Shown piece by piece: positions 1-8,449 of a stretch of 10,760 bases of DNA. The notes below the pieces were generated by a model. That model did not search any database. It was not told the DNA's origin and worked only from the letters and a program-made list of their open reading frames with translations. Source of the DNA: Candidatus Cloacimonadota bacterium (GTDB taxonomy: Bacteria; Cloacimonadota; Cloacimonadia; Cloacimonadales; Cloacimonadaceae); NCBI GenBank assembly GCA_028703735.1, contig JAQVMI010000034.1, positions 1 through 10,760 of the forward strand. The letters run 5' to 3'. A program made the position numbers and the translations under genes. Numbering within the stretch: the stretch's first letter is position 1; each line of letters begins with the position of its first letter.

Positions 1-300
1 TGGAAACTTCACCGCATTCCCACAGAGAATTTTTTGAACAAACACAAAGATCATTGCCCCCGCCTGATTATTCAATACGCCACAGAAAAAATGGATCCGG
101 ATAAAAAAGCACATTTTGCCAAAACAAAAGTGCCCAACTCTCAAAATAGATTTAACAAAAAGAATAAGGATAGACACCAGCAACATACTGGAGCAGATCC
201 CGTTAGAAAGGTTACCAAGAACGACACAGCACCTCGAAAAAAGGTGGAAACGCATACTCCTAAACCAAAAGCATTAAAACCAAACAGGATAAAGCCATGA
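1..300 (+). CDS. 3' end of an unidentified gene with a basic C-terminal tail (5' partial)
   Basis: The frame is open from the first base and ends with TGA at 298-300, so this is most likely the last 99 codons of a gene that begins upstream. A TTG at 34 is possible as a start, but nothing suggests it is used. The visible protein begins with a mixed segment (about residues 1-45, including RLIIQYATEKMDPD) that could be the end of a folded domain. After that it is dominated by Lys, Arg, Asn, Pro and Thr, the pattern of a disordered, strongly basic tail that might contact nucleic acid or membrane. I do not recognise the family. Its stop codon overlaps the ATG of the next gene as ATGA (297-300), so the two genes are probably translationally coupled. 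That the frame is coding rests on its openness and this overlap; the function is unknown. Confidence 0.6.
   Translation, partial: WKLHRIPTENFLNKHKDHCPRLIIQYATEKMDPDKKAHFAKTKVPNSQNRFNKKNKDRHQQHTGADPVRKVTKNDTAPRKKVETHTPKPKALKPNRIKP
286..289 (+). promoter_or_regulatory. Ribosome binding site of the C25 peptidase gene
   Basis: AGGA lies 7 nt before the ATG at 297, inside the end of the preceding gene. This supports ATG 297 as the start and fits the signal peptide that begins there. Confidence 0.6.
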
Positions 301-3026
301 AAACTACATTCCTAATCTTGATACTCCTGCTTCCCTTGTTCGTTATTGCCGAAAACATTAGTTTGGATATCCCCTTACCACAAGATGTTTCAAAGTTTGA
401 AACGGGAGATTTCGGTAGTCTGGGTTTGGGTACTATATCCAGCCCTGGCACTGCACAACTTCCGGTAAAAAGTATAAATGTTCTCCTGCCTCCCGGGGCA
501 GAGCTTGTTTCCTGGCAGATTACTCTCTCTGCGGCGATATCTGTTGCGGGGAAAGCTCCTAAGCGTAATTCCGCATTTTCCAATGGCGACAGAATACTAT
601 CCTCCGATATCAGAAAAGATAGTATTTCGCCTTATAGTTTCTTAGGTTTACGTAAATGGGGAGATCTGAACTATGCTGCATTTTATGTATTACCTGCCAC
701 CTGGAATGGTGAAGCATGGCAAATTAGCAGTTCTTGCCAAGTTAGTGTGGATTATAGCGTAGTAAGCACCAGCTCAAACCGGATTCCACCTACCTTTATG
801 GAACATAGTTTTTTTGCCAATCCGCAAGATATGGATCGCTGGTATGCAAGATCATCAGATAGAAATTATGATGTTTTGGTAATTTCTACTCCTGCGCTTT
901 ATGCTCAGCTTGCTACCTGGGTATCCTTTAGAGAATCCCAAGGTTTAGTTGTAACATTTACAGATATTGCCACAGCTTTAAGCACCGGTATTGGTGGCAC
1001 CGAAGAAGCTAAGCTACGCAGCTACTTACGAAATGAGTATCTTGGTAATTCTTTTAGTTACCTGTTATTGGTAGGTGATTATAACACCGTTCCCACTGCT
1101 TTCCTAACCCCCGAGCCAGATGGTTTCGAAACGGTTCCCTCAGATTTCTTCTTTAGCGATCTTAGCAGCAATTGGGATAGCGATAATGATGGCAAATTGG
1201 GAGAATACTCCACAGGTTTTATGAATCAGGATTACGAAGTGGATTTTACTCCTGAAGTTTTTGTGGGTAGAATTTCCACCAATAGTAGCTCTCAAGTGGC
1301 AAACATTGCCAGCAGGATTGTGGCTTTTGAACAGAGCAGCGCAGCCTGGAAAAACAAGAACCTGTTTCCAGCAGCATATTCAAACTATAATGGTGAGCCC
1401 GAACCACTAATGCCAGCCACCGATAGTGCCACTTATTCAGAATTTTGCATAAACACTATACTACAAGATCAGCCCAATACAACCCTTTACGAGCAGTTAG
1501 GGGTGGTTCCATCCTATCCCAGCAATTATCCTCTTAGCTACGAAGCATTGCAGCAATTACTTAACACAGAAAGCTGGGGATTCGTGAATTGGAGTGCTCA
1601 TGGCAGTTCTTCTTCCTCAGCTCGCAAAATCTGGATACAAGATTACGATCTGGATAATATACCCGATAGCGAGGAGATGACCTGGATGAATTTGGTTAAC
1701 CGCCAATCATTTGATAATCTTACCAATACAGATGGCACAGTGATATTTGCTGCCTCCTGCTATAATGGGATGATAGATTCTGATAATGCCAGCTTGGCAG
1801 AATATGCGTTAATCAAAAAGGCTGTGGGGGTAATTGGAGCTACGAGAACAGGTTGGTATAAAGTTGGATGGTTGAATCCTGGTTGGGGCGGGCTTTCCTC
1901 TTACAATTATCATTTTGTGGAAAACTATCGCCAAAACAAAACCAGCCTCGGAGCAGCACATGCTTATACCAATCTCTTGCATAGCCAGTTTTATATGTTT
2001 GGAGATCCAATTGATGCCGGAGGCATAATTTATCCTGAACTGCAAAATATTTATACTTATCTGCTCTATGGCGATCCCTTGGTGGGCTACACACCGGATG
2101 CTAACCTGCCCAATGGAGAGATATTGGTTTGGGAACCTAATGGCAATAGTGGTTTACCTGTGGTTAATGCGCTAAGACAATCTACCGGCATGAATGTGAT
2201 TTACTCCGACAAATTGATTACTGACTATAACTATCTTAGTAATTTTGAGGCTGTGTTCTGTCTGTTTGGGCAAAGTGATGCCAGCTTTCCCACTCCCCAA
2301 TCCTTCGAGTACGGATATCTAAATAGTTACCTTGCAGGAGGGGGGAAACTGTATCTGGAACCCTGGATTGCGCAGGATCCCACAGACGATTTTTGGACAA
2401 AATTTGGCACAAATGCCCCTTATCCTGGTGTTGCGCACATAGAAAGTATCGTTCACCCCGTAAGCGAAAATATCTGGCAATATGCATATCCTGATAATTC
2501 GGTTAGTATTCTGGAACCCAATTCTGCCAATGCTCATACTATCTTTATCGCCCCTGGTAATGAATTGACCGATTCCAATGTGGCAATCTGGAATACAAAC
2601 GGGAACTATCGCACTGTAACCGCCTCCTTTAATCTTTGTGGAGTGCTTGGTGAGGACAATAACCTTACAGATATGATCAGAATTATTTGTGACACCTTAA
2701 ATGTAAACACCCTAAACCCTGTAAGTAATCAAGATCCAGAATCAACCCCAGCCATGAATATATTTAGCATTTATCCCAATCCCGGCAAGGGTTTCGCAAA
2801 TATCCAAATCAGCCTAAGCAAAAATGAACCGGTAGAAATTGAAGTTTACAACATGAGAGGACAAAAGGTAAAAACCCTTATACAATCAATTATGAGCAAG
2901 GGAGAACACCAAATTCTATGGGATGGCAAGGATGAAGGAAACAGGAAATGCAGCAGTGGAGTGTACTTTATGAAGCTACGCACTGGATCTGAGCTACAAT
3001 GCAAAAAGCTTCTGTTGCTGCAATGA
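297..3026 (+). CDS. Secreted gingipain-type cysteine peptidase (family C25) with type IX secretion-style C-terminal tail
   Basis: This is a 909-aa secreted protein. Residues 1-18 form a signal peptide (MKTTFLILILLLPLFVIA). The middle carries C25 hallmarks: the aspartate-rich loop D294-S-D-N-D-G-K after SDFFFSDL, probably calcium binding; the FVGRI motif; a catalytic His in NWSAHGSS (H435); and a catalytic Cys in FAASCYNG (C488). This is the His-Cys dyad order of gingipains. A segment of roughly 200-250 residues follows with no family I can name. The last about 84 residues, starting at YPNP (826-829), form a FlgD-like/Por-secretion tail (EVYNMRGQKV, GVYFMKL) that in Bacteroidota directs export through the type IX system and surface attachment. 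By analogy it is an extracellular protease, perhaps for protein-derived nutrients. The C25 assignment is firm, while substrate specificity is unknown. The gene ends with tandem stops TGA TAA. Its start overlaps the upstream stop, and the gene is probably the last of that operon. Confidence 0.92.
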   Translation: MKTTFLILILLLPLFVIAENISLDIPLPQDVSKFETGDFGSLGLGTISSPGTAQLPVKSINVLLPPGAELVSWQITLSAAISVAGKAPKRNSAFSNGDRILSSDIRKDSISPYSFLGLRKWGDLNYAAFYVLPATWNGEAWQISSSCQVSVDYSVVSTSSNRIPPTFMEHSFFANPQDMDRWYARSSDRNYDVLVISTPALYAQLATWVSFRESQGLVVTFTDIATALSTGIGGTEEAKLRSYLRNEYLGNSFSYLLLVGDYNTVPTAFLTPEPDGFETVPSDFFFSDLSSNWDSDNDGKLGEYSTGFMNQDYEVDFTPEVFVGRISTNSSSQVANIASRIVAFEQSSAAWKNKNLFPAAYSNYNGEPEPLMPATDSATYSEFCINTILQDQPNTTLYEQLGVVPSYPSNYPLSYEALQQLLNTESWGFVNWSAHGSSSSSARKIWIQDYDLDNIPDSEEMTWMNLVNRQSFDNLTNTDGTVIFAASCYNGMIDSDNASLAEYALIKKAVGVIGATRTGWYKVGWLNPGWGGLSSYNYHFVENYRQNKTSLGAAHAYTNLLHSQFYMFGDPIDAGGIIYPELQNIYTYLLYGDPLVGYTPDANLPNGEILVWEPNGNSGLPVVNALRQSTGMNVIYSDKLITDYNYLSNFEAVFCLFGQSDASFPTPQSFEYGYLNSYLAGGGKLYLEPWIAQDPTDDFWTKFGTNAPYPGVAHIESIVHPVSENIWQYAYPDNSVSILEPNSANAHTIFIAPGNELTDSNVAIWNTNGNYRTVTASFNLCGVLGEDNNLTDMIRIICDTLNVNTLNPVSNQDPESTPAMNIFSIYPNPGKGFANIQISLSKNEPVEIEVYNMRGQKVKTLIQSIMSKGEHQILWDGKDEGNRKCSSGVYFMKLRTGSELQCKKLLLLQ

Positions 3027-3106: not shown

Positions 3107-3952
3107 ATGCCGGAAAAAAAGCAACTAAAATTCATCATTAGTGCTTTGAACTTAATGAAGGTTAACCGATACAAGAACTATAAAGCCAATATTGTTATCA
3201 ATATTGAGCGCAAGAACTTCATTGTAAAAACTGCTGATAGTTCTGAGGAACTGCTGGAAGCATTACGCCTGCGGCATGACGTATTTATCACCGAATTGCT
3301 AAAAAGAAAGAAAAAATCTGGCATTGATAAGGATAGATTTGATAAAGCCTGTGACCACTTGATTATAATAGACAAAAGATGCAATAAGATTATCGGAACT
3401 TATCGTTTGCAATCCTCTCTTTATACCAGAAAATGGTACACTGCCACAGAGTTTCACATGAGGCAGATTAAGCGTTTGCCAGGTAATAAACTGGAGCTTG
3501 GCAGAGCTTGTGTTCATCCCGATTTTCGAAATGGAGTAACCATATCTTTACTTTGGGAAGGCATCAGAGCCTACATAACTGCCAGTGAAAGCAGTTACCT
3601 GTTCGGATGTTCCAGCATTAAAACTATGGACAAAGAAGAAATTAGACTTATATACTACTACCTTAAGCAAAATGGACACATTTCTGATGATCACCGTGTA
3701 CGCCCTAAAGGTAAGTTTAAGGTACCGGGATTAAAAAAACATGTGAAAAGACAACCTATCCAAATAGAGAATATCGAGCATAATTTGATGAGAGACAAAA
3801 TACCTCCTTTACTAAACTCTTATCTTAGAGTGGGTGCTAAAGTTTGCGGAATTCCTGCTATGGATAAAGGCTTCAAATGTATAGATTTTTTAACTTTGAT
3901 GAACGTTGCGGATCTTGCCGAAGCACGTAAGCGCAAAGATGATACTGAGTAA
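3107..3952 (+). CDS. OlsB/GlsB-family acyl-ACP:amino acid N-acyltransferase
   Basis: The 281-aa protein belongs to the Acetyltransf_5/OlsB (hemolysin-like) branch of the GNAT fold. Known members transfer a 3-hydroxyacyl chain from acyl-ACP to the amino group of ornithine (OlsB) or glycine (GlsB), the first step of aminolipid synthesis at the inner membrane. Family motifs appear in order: RLRHDVF (54-60), CDHLIII (82-88), IIGTYRL (95-101), ELGRACVHPDFRNG (130-143), LFGCSSI (165-171), and the C-terminal block PPLLNSYLRVGAKVCG (233-248) leading to DFLTLM (260-265). The first about 35 residues are basic and look like an extension. The start at 3107 is chosen from the GGGGAG site. The next gene, a PlsC-type O-acyltransferase, overlaps by 14 nt, so the two very probably act in sequence on one lipid. 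Whether the head group is ornithine, glycine or another amino acid cannot be read from the sequence. Confidence 0.85.
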   Translation: MPEKKQLKFIISALNLMKVNRYKNYKANIVINIERKNFIVKTADSSEELLEALRLRHDVFITELLKRKKKSGIDKDRFDKACDHLIIIDKRCNKIIGTYRLQSSLYTRKWYTATEFHMRQIKRLPGNKLELGRACVHPDFRNGVTISLLWEGIRAYITASESSYLFGCSSIKTMDKEEIRLIYYYLKQNGHISDDHRVRPKGKFKVPGLKKHVKRQPIQIENIEHNLMRDKIPPLLNSYLRVGAKVCGIPAMDKGFKCIDFLTLMNVADLAEARKRKDDTE

Positions 3953-5910: not shown

Positions 5911-6762
5911 ATGAAAGTAAGAGTGCTTGAATCTGCTTATATTGAACAAGAACTCTTTGCCGCTATTCAAAGCATAAGCTTCAACCCTGATCCGGACATC
6001 AAATTCTGCCTTCAAAAAGCCCTTGATAACGAAACATCACCTCTTGCCAAGGACATCCTGATGTGCATGCTACAGAATCTTAAAGCTGCTGCAACAGATA
6101 GAATCCCCTTATGCCAGGATACTGGTAGCTTGGTAGTGTTTGCAGATATTGGCTGCAAACTCCAAATCCTGGGAGATTCCCTTCCAATAATAGTAAACAA
6201 TGCCCTAAGAAGGGCTACATCTGAGCTGTACCTTAGAGCCTCGATGCTTAAAGACCCTTTGTTTTCGCGTATAAACACGGGTGATAACACACCTGCCTTT
6301 TTTCACTGTCGCATAAACCCGGGAGATTCGCTAAAGCTAAAAATAGCCCAAAAGGGTGGAGGTGCCGAAAACATGAGCCGTCTTAAAATGTTTACCCCTG
6401 CCGCCAGTGAAGCAGATATTATTGACTTTGTGGTGGAAACCGTTCTGCTTGCCGGAGCAAAAGCCTGCCCTCCTCTGGTAATTGGAGTTGGCATTGGGGG
6501 AAATTTTGAAACCTCTGCCATAATGGCGAAAGAAGCTTTGTTGCAGCCACTGCTAATGCATAATCAGGATTTAAACTATGCGAACTTGGAGGAGAAGATG
6601 TTAAAAGCAGTAAACAATACCGGCATAGGAGTTCAGGGTATGGGGGGTAATTATACAGCCTTTGCAGTCCACATTTTGGAACAGCCCTGCCACATTGCCT
6701 CATTACCCGTGGCGGTTAACCTTCAGTGCCACTCTCATCGTCATATTAGTATCGAGCTTTAA
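5911..6762 (+). CDS. Class I fumarate hydratase, alpha (Fe-S) subunit
   Basis: The 283-aa protein is the N-terminal half-equivalent of class I fumarases, which interconvert fumarate and L-malate using a catalytic, oxygen-sensitive 4Fe-4S cluster. All three cluster cysteines are visible: C68 in PLCQDTG, C186 in CPPLVIGVGIGGNFE and C273 in LQCHSHRH. Other family blocks are NTGDNTPAFFH, KGGGAENMS and NNTGIGVQGMGG. Length matches the two-subunit form found in anaerobes and archaea. A weak ribosome site AGAGG (5898-5902) lies 8 nt before the ATG. The beta subunit gene follows after 5 nt, so an alpha/beta enzyme is formed. L(+)-tartrate dehydratase TtdAB has the same architecture and cannot be excluded by eye, but there are no tartrate genes nearby. 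The role would be in the reductive or oxidative branch of the TCA cycle, in the cytoplasm. Confidence 0.9.
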   Translation: MKVRVLESAYIEQELFAAIQSISFNPDPDIKFCLQKALDNETSPLAKDILMCMLQNLKAAATDRIPLCQDTGSLVVFADIGCKLQILGDSLPIIVNNALRRATSELYLRASMLKDPLFSRINTGDNTPAFFHCRINPGDSLKLKIAQKGGGAENMSRLKMFTPAASEADIIDFVVETVLLAGAKACPPLVIGVGIGGNFETSAIMAKEALLQPLLMHNQDLNYANLEEKMLKAVNNTGIGVQGMGGNYTAFAVHILEQPCHIASLPVAVNLQCHSHRHISIEL

Positions 6763-6767
6763 CCACA

Positions 6768-7271
6768 ATGAATATCCAGAAATTGGTTTTGCCACTATCT
6801 TTGCAGGATATTAGCCAGCTTAAACAAGGAGACAAGGCTTTGCTTACCGGAATATTACTAACAGCACGCGATGCTGCTCATAAACGGTTAGCAGAGTGTA
6901 TTAGTAACAAGCAAGAACTTCCCTTCGATTTACGCGAGAGTACAATTTTCTATTGTGGACCAAGCCCAACCCCTGATGGTAAAATATGCGGAGCTGTAGG
7001 ACCCACCACAAGTTCCAGGATGGACAAATGGACACCCCTACTATTGGAACATGGGCTTAGAGCTATGATTGGCAAGGGAGAAAGAAGTGAAGCAGTTCAA
7101 AATGAAATCAGAAGAATGGGTTCAATATATTTTGTAGCAGTGGGAGGAATTAGCGCATACTTGACAAGGCACATTGTTTCATGTGAAACATACCTATGGG
7201 AGGAGCTTGGTACTGAGGCAATATATAGACTAAGGGTTGTCGATTTCCCTGTTTATGTAAGTATAGTTTGA
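6768..7271 (+). CDS. Class I fumarate hydratase, beta subunit
   Basis: The 167-aa protein corresponds to the C-terminal domain of class I fumarases, which supplies substrate-binding residues and completes the active site with the alpha chain. Diagnostic blocks are TARDAAHKR (32-40), YCGPSP (62-67), GPTTSSRMD (79-87), MIGKG (100-104) and GTEAIYRLRVVDFPVYV (148-164). There is no ribosome site in the 5-nt gap after the alpha gene, so translation is probably coupled. It ends at TGA 7269-7271, facing the purE gene. A near-perfect parS sequence lies in codons 136-141 (I-V-S-C-E-T), in a region that varies between family members, which may be why the protein tolerates it. Confidence 0.9.
   Translation: MNIQKLVLPLSLQDISQLKQGDKALLTGILLTARDAAHKRLAECISNKQELPFDLRESTIFYCGPSPTPDGKICGAVGPTTSSRMDKWTPLLLEHGLRAMIGKGERSEAVQNEIRRMGSIYFVAVGGISAYLTRHIVSCETYLWEELGTEAIYRLRVVDFPVYVSIV
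7175..7190. other. parS: Second, one-mismatch parS site inside the fumarase beta gene
   Basis: TGTTTCATGTGAAACA differs from the parS consensus TGTTTCACGTGAAACA only at the eighth base (T for C). Both half-sites are otherwise intact. One-mismatch sites of this sort are known ParB targets in bacteria with several parS copies. It lies 497 bp centre-to-centre from the perfect site in purE. Function is inferred from sequence identity only. Confidence 0.75.
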
Positions 7272-7310: not shown

Positions 7311-7763
7311 TCAGGCATTCTTTAGTGCGGATTTGTATAGCTTAAATTTCTCGCTTAATCCCTTGTCAGCCAAACTCAATATTTGCACTGCTAATAATGC
7401 GGCATTCTTTGCTCCTCCAATTGCCACACAAGCTACAGGAACACCTGCCGGCATCTGCACAATCGAATACAGGGAGTCAATACCGTTCAGAGCACCCGAA
7501 GCCAATGGCAACCCAATAACAGGTAAACATGTATGGGCAGCTACTACTCCAGGTAAATGAGCAGCGAGTCCCGCAGCAGCAATAATAACCTTTATTCCCT
7601 CAGATTCCGCATTTTTGGCAAGTAGCGCAGTGTTTTCGGGATCGCGATGAGCGGAAGAGATGTGTAAATCATGTTTCACGTGAAACAGATCTAAAATCTC
7701 AACCGCTGGAGCGATTTTTTCGATATCGCTTTTGCTGCCTAATATTATTCTTACGCTAAGCAC
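7311..7763 (-). CDS. purE: N5-carboxyaminoimidazole ribonucleotide mutase (PurE)
   Basis: The 150-aa protein has the usual length of a bacterial PurE, a cytoplasmic octameric enzyme of purine synthesis that converts N5-CAIR to CAIR. Visible blocks are GSKSD (9-13), SAHRDP (37-42, with the active-site His39), AAAGLAAHLPGVVAAHT (62-78), LPVIGLPL (80-87) and VQMPAGVPVACVAIG (102-116). In most class I enzymes the second block reads SAHRTP, so D41 is a mild oddity. The start is GTG at 7763-7761, sharing its first G with the TAG stop of the upstream HTH-EIIA gene, and there is no ribosome site, so translation is coupled. Codons 26-31 (LFHVKH) contain a perfect parS site; this lies in the variable strand before SAHR. 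No other purine gene is in view, so purE is separated from any pur operon. Confidence 0.92.
   Translation of the reverse strand: MLSVRIILGSKSDIEKIAPAVEILDLFHVKHDLHISSAHRDPENTALLAKNAESEGIKVIIAAAGLAAHLPGVVAAHTCLPVIGLPLASGALNGIDSLYSIVQMPAGVPVACVAIGGAKNAALLAVQILSLADKGLSEKFKLYKSALKNA
7672..7687. other. parS: Perfect parS centromere site inside purE
   Basis: TGTTTCACGTGAAACA is a perfect 16-bp palindrome identical to the well-known bacterial chromosomal parS consensus bound by ParB, as defined in Bacillus subtilis and conserved very widely. An exact match is expected by chance about 3 times per million windows of this size with even base use (10,760 / 4^16). ParB loads on parS and spreads, recruiting SMC and working with ParA for origin segregation. 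parS sites usually lie near oriC, and intragenic sites are common. Confidence 0.92.
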
Positions 7764-8437
7764 TATTTGCTGGATTGCTCTGGGATTATGGTAAGTGATT
7801 TATGGATTGCTGTAGCATCTTCGGCAGTAGAAAAACTTTCCAATACTTCTGCATTCATAATAAGTTTAGAGATGTAGGACAGTGAAAATAAATGCTGTTT
7901 GTCGTTGTGTAACAGTAACATAAAGAATATATTAACCGGTTTATTGTCTGGGGCATCAAAATCAACTGGCTCAGCAGAGCGACCAAACAAGATGCTGGGT
8001 GCTTTGATCTTAGATGGGTGCAAATGTCTGGGATGTAACAAAGCCACACCGTTGCCTATGGCAGTGGAAATAAGCTCTTCTCTGGCAACCACAACTTCAT
8101 AAAGCCAGCGAGCATCGCGTACAAGTTTCAGGTCCTTAGCTTTCTCACTTAAAATACGAATCGAATCGTATTTATTTTCGGCAGAGAAATCTAAAAAGAT
8201 GTTCTCGGGACGCATGTATTCTTCAAAGTGGCAAATCACGCGTTTTAGAGCTAACATCTTTTCGTCTGTTTCGTTTAAATTCTCCAGCCATTCATTAAGT
8301 GAGTCCTCATCAATCTTCACATTTTTTCCTACGAGTTTGCTTTCAAACAATCCCGTAGCGATCATTTCCTGCACTACTCTGTCGGATACCTTTAACTTCT
8401 TGGCAGCGTCAGCTTTAGACAAGAATTTCTTTGCCAT
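7763..8437 (-). CDS. Excisionase/MerR-type HTH fused to a PTS EIIA (PtsN/fructose-type) domain
   Basis: The 224-aa protein has two parts. Residues about 3-55 form a short excisionase-like winged helix (LSKADAAKKLKVSDRVVQEMI, a GK-V-I-DEDSL-EWL turn), of the type that reads DNA. Residues about 74-220 form an EIIA domain of the mannitol/fructose/PtsN family: REELISTAIGNGVALLHPRH contains the phosphorylatable His (H135), followed by the conserved FxAPDxxPVNIFFMLL and HLFSLSYISKLI segments. This suggests a DNA-binding or signalling protein switched by phosphorylation from HPr, rather than a sugar permease part, since no EIIB or EIIC gene is nearby. Start choice: an ATG at 8449 is in frame, but GGAGGT at 8447-8442 overlaps it and sits 4 nt before ATG 8437, which I take as the start. 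The stop overlaps the purE start. The target genes are unknown; the divergent lptE unit is one candidate. Confidence 0.85.
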   Translation of the reverse strand: MAKKFLSKADAAKKLKVSDRVVQEMIATGLFESKLVGKNVKIDEDSLNEWLENLNETDEKMLALKRVICHFEEYMRPENIFLDFSAENKYDSIRILSEKAKDLKLVRDARWLYEVVVAREELISTAIGNGVALLHPRHLHPSKIKAPSILFGRSAEPVDFDAPDNKPVNIFFMLLLHNDKQHLFSLSYISKLIMNAEVLESFSTAEDATAIHKSLTIIPEQSSK

Positions 8438-8441
8438 TGAT

Positions 8442-8447
8442 ACCTCC
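8442..8447 (-). promoter_or_regulatory. Ribosome binding site deciding the start of the HTH-EIIA gene
   Basis: GGAGGT on the minus strand lies 4 nt before ATG 8437-8435. The alternative ATG at 8449-8447 overlaps this sequence and has no site of its own, so the shorter protein is preferred. Confidence 0.7.
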
Positions 8448-8449
8448 AT

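What the first reader, a model, noticed from the sequence alone, without database searches (positions are those of the whole stretch)
7672..7687. Perfect chromosomal centromere (parS) hidden in the purE coding sequence
TGTTTCACGTGAAACA is identical, base for base, to the bacterial parS consensus and is a full palindrome. By simple arithmetic an exact match is expected about 3e-6 times in a window of this length. It is carried in codons 26-31 of purE (LFHVKH), a variable segment just before the active-site SAHR block, so the protein appears to have accommodated the site. This marks the window as a probable ParB nucleation zone and hence near the replication origin.
Basis: partly seen in the sequence, partly recalled or inferred. 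Interest (0 to 1): 0.88.

Follow-up and report, generated by a model that had tools for sequence, protein, structure and literature searches.

The report
Chromosome centromere sites inside enzyme genes
A bacterium carries its likely chromosome-segregation landing sites (parS) inside two ordinary metabolic genes, and in one of them related species preserve the exact DNA letters far more strictly than the enzyme itself would need.

Summary
In detail: TGTTTCACGTGAAACA lies at 7672-7687 in purE codons 26-31. They are the only matches with at most 1 mismatch in the 2.5 Mb bin. The parS reading is well supported: one ParB_N protein with parS-type residues; 41 of 49 family genomes carry a site; in 11 of 14 relatives with dnaA contigs of 30 kb or more the site is on that contig, 12-35 kb from dnaA. 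In the family, sites stay at one address, the fumAB-purE block, but hop between genes. The strongest result concerns the companion fumAb site: its parS codons are almost fixed (synonymous identity 0.89-0.94 against 0.33), and the three aligned fumAb genes lying on another contig than parS have drifted. PurE has three residues unique to this species inside the 16-mer. Intragenic parS is known; the conserved address with moving sites and the protein accommodation are the new parts. ParB binding is untested, origin distance in this genome is inferred, SMC was not detected.

The parts
7672..7687 (.). parS site 1, exact consensus palindrome, in codons 26-31 of purE
   Evidence: own-unique PurE residues L26, H28, K30 inside it
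7175..7190 (.). parS site 2, one mismatch (TGTTTCATGTGAAACA), in codons V-S-C-E-T of the fumarate hydratase beta gene; the position most used in the family (32 of 44 aligned genomes with at most 2 mismatches)
7311..7763 (-). purE, 5-(carboxyamino)imidazole ribonucleotide mutase; hosts site 1
   Evidence: TIGR01162 181.9 bits, cut-off 149.6
6768..7271 (+). fumarate hydratase beta subunit; hosts site 2
   Evidence: TIGR00723 155.8 bits, cut-off 145.15
5911..6762 (+). fumarate hydratase alpha subunit; hosts parS in some relatives (G001, G007, G015, G026, G069)
   Evidence: PRK06246 322.4 bits, cut-off 276
7763..8449 (-). ptsN-like gene (excisionase-type domain plus PTS IIA) next to purE; in several outgroup families parS lies just after ptsN or ptsN-purE
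   Evidence: (matches below the curated cut-offs)

Best explanation
The two palindromes are chromosomal parS sites of this bacterium. The genome's single ParB_N protein should nucleate on them, spread over the fumAB-purE block and, with ParA, move the newly copied origin region apart. Shown here by computation: the sequences, a ParB with parS-type residues, restriction of the sites to one block in the family, closeness to dnaA in most testable relatives, and selection on the DNA letters of the fumAb site beyond what the protein needs. Inferred: ParB binding, spreading and segregation, and the origin distance in this genome. Evolutionary reading, also inferred: the address next to ptsN-purE is old (shared with several families of the order), fumAB lies on its other side in this family, and single sites are born and lost within about 2.5 kb, which bends the residues of whichever enzyme gene holds them.
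For: The 16-mer is the parS consensus used in PMC7383237 (passages seen). Only two matches with at most 1 mismatch in the bin, 497 bp apart. 41 of 49 family genomes have 1-2 such sites, control pattern 2 of 49; phylum sample 99 of 117, control 8 of 117. One ParB_N protein, E 8.7e-49 to Spo0J chain 1vz0_A, with R, S, K, G at the spacing of positions 173/179/184/201; R173 and G201 are the ParB-type residues. Sites of at most 2 mismatches lie in the fumAB block in 42 of 49 family genomes (6 of these 42 have 2-mismatch sites only) and beside the purE 3' end in 4 of 49; 3 of 49 could not be placed. The dnaA contig holds the site in 10 of 31 genomes against 1.03 expected from contig length, at most 7 in 200,000 simulations; in the one-contig G007 the distance is 23.4 kb. 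fumAb parS codons: synonymous identity 0.94 (32 genomes chosen by the DNA site) or 0.89 (34 chosen by residues only) against 0.33 in 62-63 background codons; 0 of 20,000 degeneracy-matched draws each. V-S-C/R-E-T is in 0 of 23 outgroup fumAb genes, though G044 and G054 have V-S-S-E. In G011, G014 and G024, where parS is at the purE side and fumAb on another contig, the fumAb codons have drifted.
Against: No binding data. The window's contig is not joined to dnaA. Congener G005 has its site at least about 74 kb from dnaA; G004 and G012 have dnaA contigs over 30 kb without a site. One of the 11 agreeing genomes (G035) has only a 2-mismatch site. The purE site is known from one species, so its own codon constraint is untested, and the residue test there was chosen after seeing the alignment. 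SMC_prok_B gave only 17-20 bits, cut-off 567, in a bin 80.8% complete. GC skew in sampled G007 stretches is weak. Three of 49 family genomes could not be placed, and 18 of 117 in the phylum sample have no site with at most 1 mismatch.
Confidence: 0.93

Rival explanations
1. The palindromes are operators of a transcription factor or RNA hairpins that regulate fumAB or purE.
For: They are palindromic and lie in or between genes of one block.
Against: The same 16-mer occurs in or beside unrelated genes in other families (named by eye: manC, rsmG, fmt, before parA; after ptsN); in G011 and G024 it is on the dnaA contig while fumAb is on another; it equals the parS consensus and a parS-type ParB is present.
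Confidence: 0.03
2. Chance: the purE copy arose by drift from the common F-x-V codons and has no function, while the fumAb copy is the only working site.
For: It is found in one species only; F27 and V29 are common PurE residues. In 13 family genomes the fumAb variant is the sole site with at most 1 mismatch, so one such site seems to suffice.
Against: Exact 16 of 16 match 497 bp from the family-wide site; 3 of 6 site residues unique to this species against 4 of 140 elsewhere, Fisher p 0.0013, test chosen after seeing the alignment; two sites with at most 1 mismatch within about 1.3 kb occur in 10 of 49 family genomes including this one.
Confidence: 0.1
3. The sites are Noc binding sites (nucleoid occlusion) rather than parS.
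For: Noc is a ParB paralogue with a related 16-bp site; this ParB has K at position 184 as Noc does.
Against: R173 and G201 are of the ParB type; the purE site has the parS and not the NBS letters; only one ParB_N protein was found in the bin.
Confidence: 0.01

Closest known systems
Chromosomal parS of ParABS systems
   Same: 16-bp consensus, near dnaA in most testable relatives, parS-type ParB in the genome
   Different: Only 1-2 sites with at most 1 mismatch per family genome, paired sites 0.4-1.3 kb apart; parB can be far off (305 kb from the site in G007; 34-46 kb in G015, G017, G032)
Intragenic parS of Pseudomonas aeruginosa (nine of ten predicted in coding sequences) and parS1 in trpCF of Corynebacterium glutamicum
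   Same: parS carried inside coding sequence (passages seen in PMC4368675 and PMC7083940)
   Different: Here codon and residue constraint is measured across species, with drift in fumAb copies that lie away from parS; the passages I saw do not report such a test
Noc binding site (NBS)
   Same: related palindrome family
   Different: site letters and ParB residues are parS-type

Membership tests
chromosomal parS | 16-bp palindrome matching TGTTTCACGTGAAACA | tested here: met
   consensus as stated in PMC7383237
chromosomal parS | ParB with R173/G201-type DNA-binding residues in the same genome | tested here: met
   residues counted by spacing from printed alignments, numbering recalled and matched to PMC7383237 passages
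chromosomal parS | ParA partner beside ParB | tested here: inconclusive
   ORF at the contig edge next to parB looks like ParA by eye; not scored with a profile
chromosomal parS | lies near the replication origin | tested here: inconclusive
   11 of 14 relatives with dnaA contigs of 30 kb or more; the own contig is not linked; G005 is an exception
chromosomal parS | DNA sequence under selection as a site | tested here: met
   fumAb site; not testable for the purE site (one species)
chromosomal parS | ParB binds and spreads with CTP; origin segregation | not testable with these tools
   needs EMSA/BLI, ChIP-seq, microscopy
chromosomal parS | SMC loading at the site | tested here: inconclusive
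   no SMC_prok_B over the cut-off in a bin 80.8% complete
Noc binding site | NBS bases and Q/K/K/R residues in the protein | tested here: not met

The most novel reading that the evidence does not exclude
A bacterial centromere with a fixed chromosomal address but no fixed sequence position: parS sites are born and lost inside neighbouring enzyme genes, and selection for ParB binding has repeatedly rewritten enzyme residues (V-S-C/R-E-T in FumAb, a like motif at the FumAa N-terminus in two genera, F-H-V-K-H in PurE, F-H-V/M-K-Q in ManC of other families), so that protein evolution is driven by chromosome segregation.
Probability: 0.6. Interest if true: 0.65.

Novelty: new member of a known kind. 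Interest (0 to 1): 0.52.

Why it matters
It gives a natural experiment on how a centromere constrains the genes it sits in: the same enzyme can be compared with and without parS, and the codon constraint goes with the site. It also maps parS across a lineage that no tool named. My unverified guess at the phylum is Cloacimonadota; a search for Cloacimon-, parS and ParB together listed one paper, on ribosomal protein trees (listing only). The site could also serve as a marker for origin regions in fragmented bins.

Tried and rejected
Rejected: purE as the special gene; in relatives the fumAB-purE block is the unit and purE codons hold the site only here. Rejected: counting 3-mismatch hits; in the eight family genomes without a site of at most 1 mismatch the reversed control pattern gave as many or more hits in seven of eight, so only hits of at most 2 mismatches were used for placing sites. 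Rejected: a chimeric contig; the order FumAb-PurE-PtsN-LptE-RluB-YchF recurs in 14 other family genomes. Weak: GC skew of G007 from 22 stretches, about 430 kb of 2.25 Mb: mean +0.029 in 12 first-half stretches, -0.015 in 10 second-half stretches. Led nowhere: SMC_prok_B in the own bin. Livny 2007, the main parS survey, is not held; I saw it only as cited in other papers. No tool named the organism. Gene names in other families (manC, rsmG, fmt, parA and others) were given by eye, not by profile.

Dropped before counts: in the dnaA test, 4 of the 36 family genomes (G003 and G034 no dnaA hit, G013 partial, G019 no placeable site); for this genome only one of the two contigs that split dnaA was used for the expected value. 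In the fumAb codon test 44 of 49 family genomes were aligned (not G003, G008, G013, G019, G034). In the PurE residue test 146 of 150 columns were used. Order-level sites were fetched for 20 of 21 matching genomes (not G056). The 80 PurE loci are the kept part of 582, from a capped list.

Full report
What is there. The exact palindrome TGTTTCACGTGAAACA is at 7672-7687, inside purE (7311-7763, minus strand; TIGR01162 181.9 bits), read as LFHVKH in codons 26-31. A second site, TGTTTCATGTGAAACA, lies at 7175-7190 inside the fumarate hydratase beta gene (6768-7271). With up to 3 mismatches the window has these 2 matches against 0.03 expected, and none of 200 shuffles had 2. In the whole genome bin (2,504,960 bases, 472 contigs, 80.8% complete) they are the only matches with at most 1 mismatch; three single 2-mismatch hits lie on other contigs and the reversed control pattern has none.

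The machinery. The bin encodes one ParB_N protein (contig C218, E 1.7e-32) beside an ORF at the contig edge that looks like ParA by eye. It matches the Spo0J chain 1vz0_A at E 8.7e-49. Counted by spacing in the printed alignments it has R, S, K and G at the places numbered 173, 179, 184 and 201 in Caulobacter ParB. PMC7383237 (passages seen) gives R173 and G201 as the residues of ParB as against Q173 and R201 of Noc, and the same 16-mer as the parS consensus. No SMC_prok_B match reached its cut-off (best 20.2 bits of 567.35), which in an incomplete bin leaves SMC open.

Other genomes. Of 60 genomes (this one and relatives) 51 have a site with at most 1 mismatch (control pattern 1 of 60). In the family it is 41 of 49 (control 2 of 49), in a phylum sample 99 of 117 (control 8 of 117). 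Of the eight family genomes without one, six (G002, G012, G021, G035, G065, G068) have 2-mismatch sites in the fumAB block. Altogether 42 of 49 family genomes have their site(s) in the fumAB block, 4 of 49 (G008, G011, G014, G024) beside the purE 3' end (in G024 that is a 2-mismatch site; its 1-mismatch site is about 7 kb away), and 3 of 49 (G003, G013, G019) cannot be placed. Within the block the site moves: fumAb C-terminal codons, the fumAa/fumAb junction, the fumAa start, mid-fumAa, and in this genome also purE.

An old address. In other families of the order the gene run ychF-rluB-lptE-ptsN-purE is kept in a number of genomes. parS lies within 20 nt of the end of the purE alignment in G040, G041, G042, G046 and G048, or directly after ptsN in G050, G055, G058 and G059, where no purE was found in the fetched stretch: together 9 of the 20 order-level genomes whose sites I fetched. 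Six of the 20 (G038, G039, G044, G046, G051, G052) carry a site inside a gene that I take for manC, encoding F-(H/N)-(V/M)-K-Q. Other sites lie elsewhere, e.g. before a parA-like gene (G037) and in an fmt-like gene (G054). Of the 19 order-level genomes with both genes located, fumAb is on another contig than dnaA in 18; in G057 they share a contig, about 38 kb apart.

Origin. In G007, a single 2.25 Mb contig of the same genus, dnaA is at 310, the site at 23,670 and parB at 328,513. In 31 family genomes (G007 set aside) the dnaA contig holds the site in 10 against 1.03 expected from contig length; 200,000 simulations reached at most 7. Of 14 genomes with a dnaA contig of 30 kb or more, 11 have the site on it, at 12.3-34.7 kb (in G035 a 2-mismatch site). 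Against this: G004 and G012 do not, and G005 has its site at least about 74 kb from dnaA (distances to contig ends). The own dnaA is split over two contigs that do not reach the window. GC skew in G007 only weakly agrees.

Selection on the letters. In fumAb the site is written in the codons GTT TCA TGT/CGT GAA ACA. In 20 of 31 family genomes aligned first (those with at most 2 mismatches there), mean pairwise synonymous identity is 0.96 for the five codons against 0.33 for 57 other conserved degenerate codons, none of which reaches 0.90. With 44 of 49 family genomes aligned, four of the five codons pass the residue threshold (the C/R codon does not); their mean is 0.94 in 32 genomes chosen by the DNA site and 0.89 in 34 chosen by residues only, which avoids choosing on the DNA, against 0.33 for 62-63 others; 0 of 20,000 degeneracy-matched draws reached it in either case. 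The single best background codon reaches 0.88, and the ACA codon alone is 0.73-0.82. None of 23 outgroup fumAb genes has V-S-C/R-E-T, though G044 and G054 have V-S-S-E. Where fumAb lies on another contig than parS the codons have drifted: G024 keeps ISCET but spells it ATC TCC TGC GAA ACC; G011 and G014 differ more. G008, the fourth such genome, was not aligned, and as its parS is 189 bp from a contig end its fumAb could still be close. Seven of the 44 (G010, G018, G023, G028, G029, G031, G062) lack the fumAb site and have one at the fumAa/fumAb junction.

purE itself. None of 13 family members, 80 loci from genomes with record titles (the kept part of 582) or six congener orthologues (68-73% identical) reads FHVKH at this place. 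Among 25 sequences (24 others), three of the six site residues (L26, H28, K30) are unique to this species against 4 of 140 elsewhere, p 0.0013; I chose that test after seeing the alignment. Congeners: purE-ptsN lies away from fumAB in G001, G002, G005 and G007. In G004 both blocks end at contig edges (fumAb about 300 bp from one, purE about 550 bp from another), so they may be neighbours as in this window. In G003 fumAb was not found. No site of at most 2 mismatches was near purE in the five congener regions scanned (G001, G002, G004, G005, G007), and G003 has none at all. The bin also has a second, more distant purE on contig C66 (53% identical). With one species the codon constraint at this exact site cannot be tested.

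Literature. Intragenic parS is known: PMC4368675 (passages) says nine of ten P. aeruginosa sites are most likely in coding sequences; PMC7083940 (passages) places one of ten in trpCF. PMC4409726 and PMC3899335 were seen as passages only. My searches (listings of the top rows) showed no paper on codon or residue constraint imposed by parS, but the library lacks most subscription papers, including Livny 2007.

Verdict. Very probably a true parS pair of ordinary sequence in a lineage the tools did not name. The interest lies in the conserved address with moving sites and in the measurable bending of enzyme sequence by a centromere.

Noticed in passing
7763-8449: A two-part protein, excisionase-type DNA-binding domain plus PTS IIA domain, next to purE, 77-92% identical in the family and 47-65% in outgroup families, where it often sits beside parS; function unknown.
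   Followed up: partly
G000 contig C66:4090-4527 (L274, L343): A second purE-like gene in the same bin, 53% identical to the window's PurE. Congener G006 has one of the same kind; its window-type copy was not found, but its ptsN lies 208 bp from a contig edge.
   Followed up: partly
L213:12506-12521 (G030), L216:371-386 (G034), L327:4703-4718 (G071), L328:12090-12105 (G072), inside olsB: A 2-mismatch parS-like stretch recurs inside the olsB ornithine-lipid gene of four genomes; perhaps only a conserved peptide, perhaps a weak site. The own olsB has 4 mismatches at 3450.
   Followed up: no
start of fumAa in L183 (G001), L187 (G007), L203 (G002), L336 (G069), L339 (G068): The FumAa N-terminus carries parS-like codons (YVSRET, YVSHET, YVLCET, YVSHET, LLSRET) in two genera, g1 and g3: convergent gain or repeated loss.
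   Followed up: partly
window 297-3026: Large protein with a type IX secretion sorting tail (TIGR04183); related stretches match in many neighbouring loci.
   Followed up: no
L234:7959-8001 (G051): Two parS sites 27 bp apart inside the manC-like gene, the first in an extra peptide segment that looks like a duplicated site.
   Followed up: no
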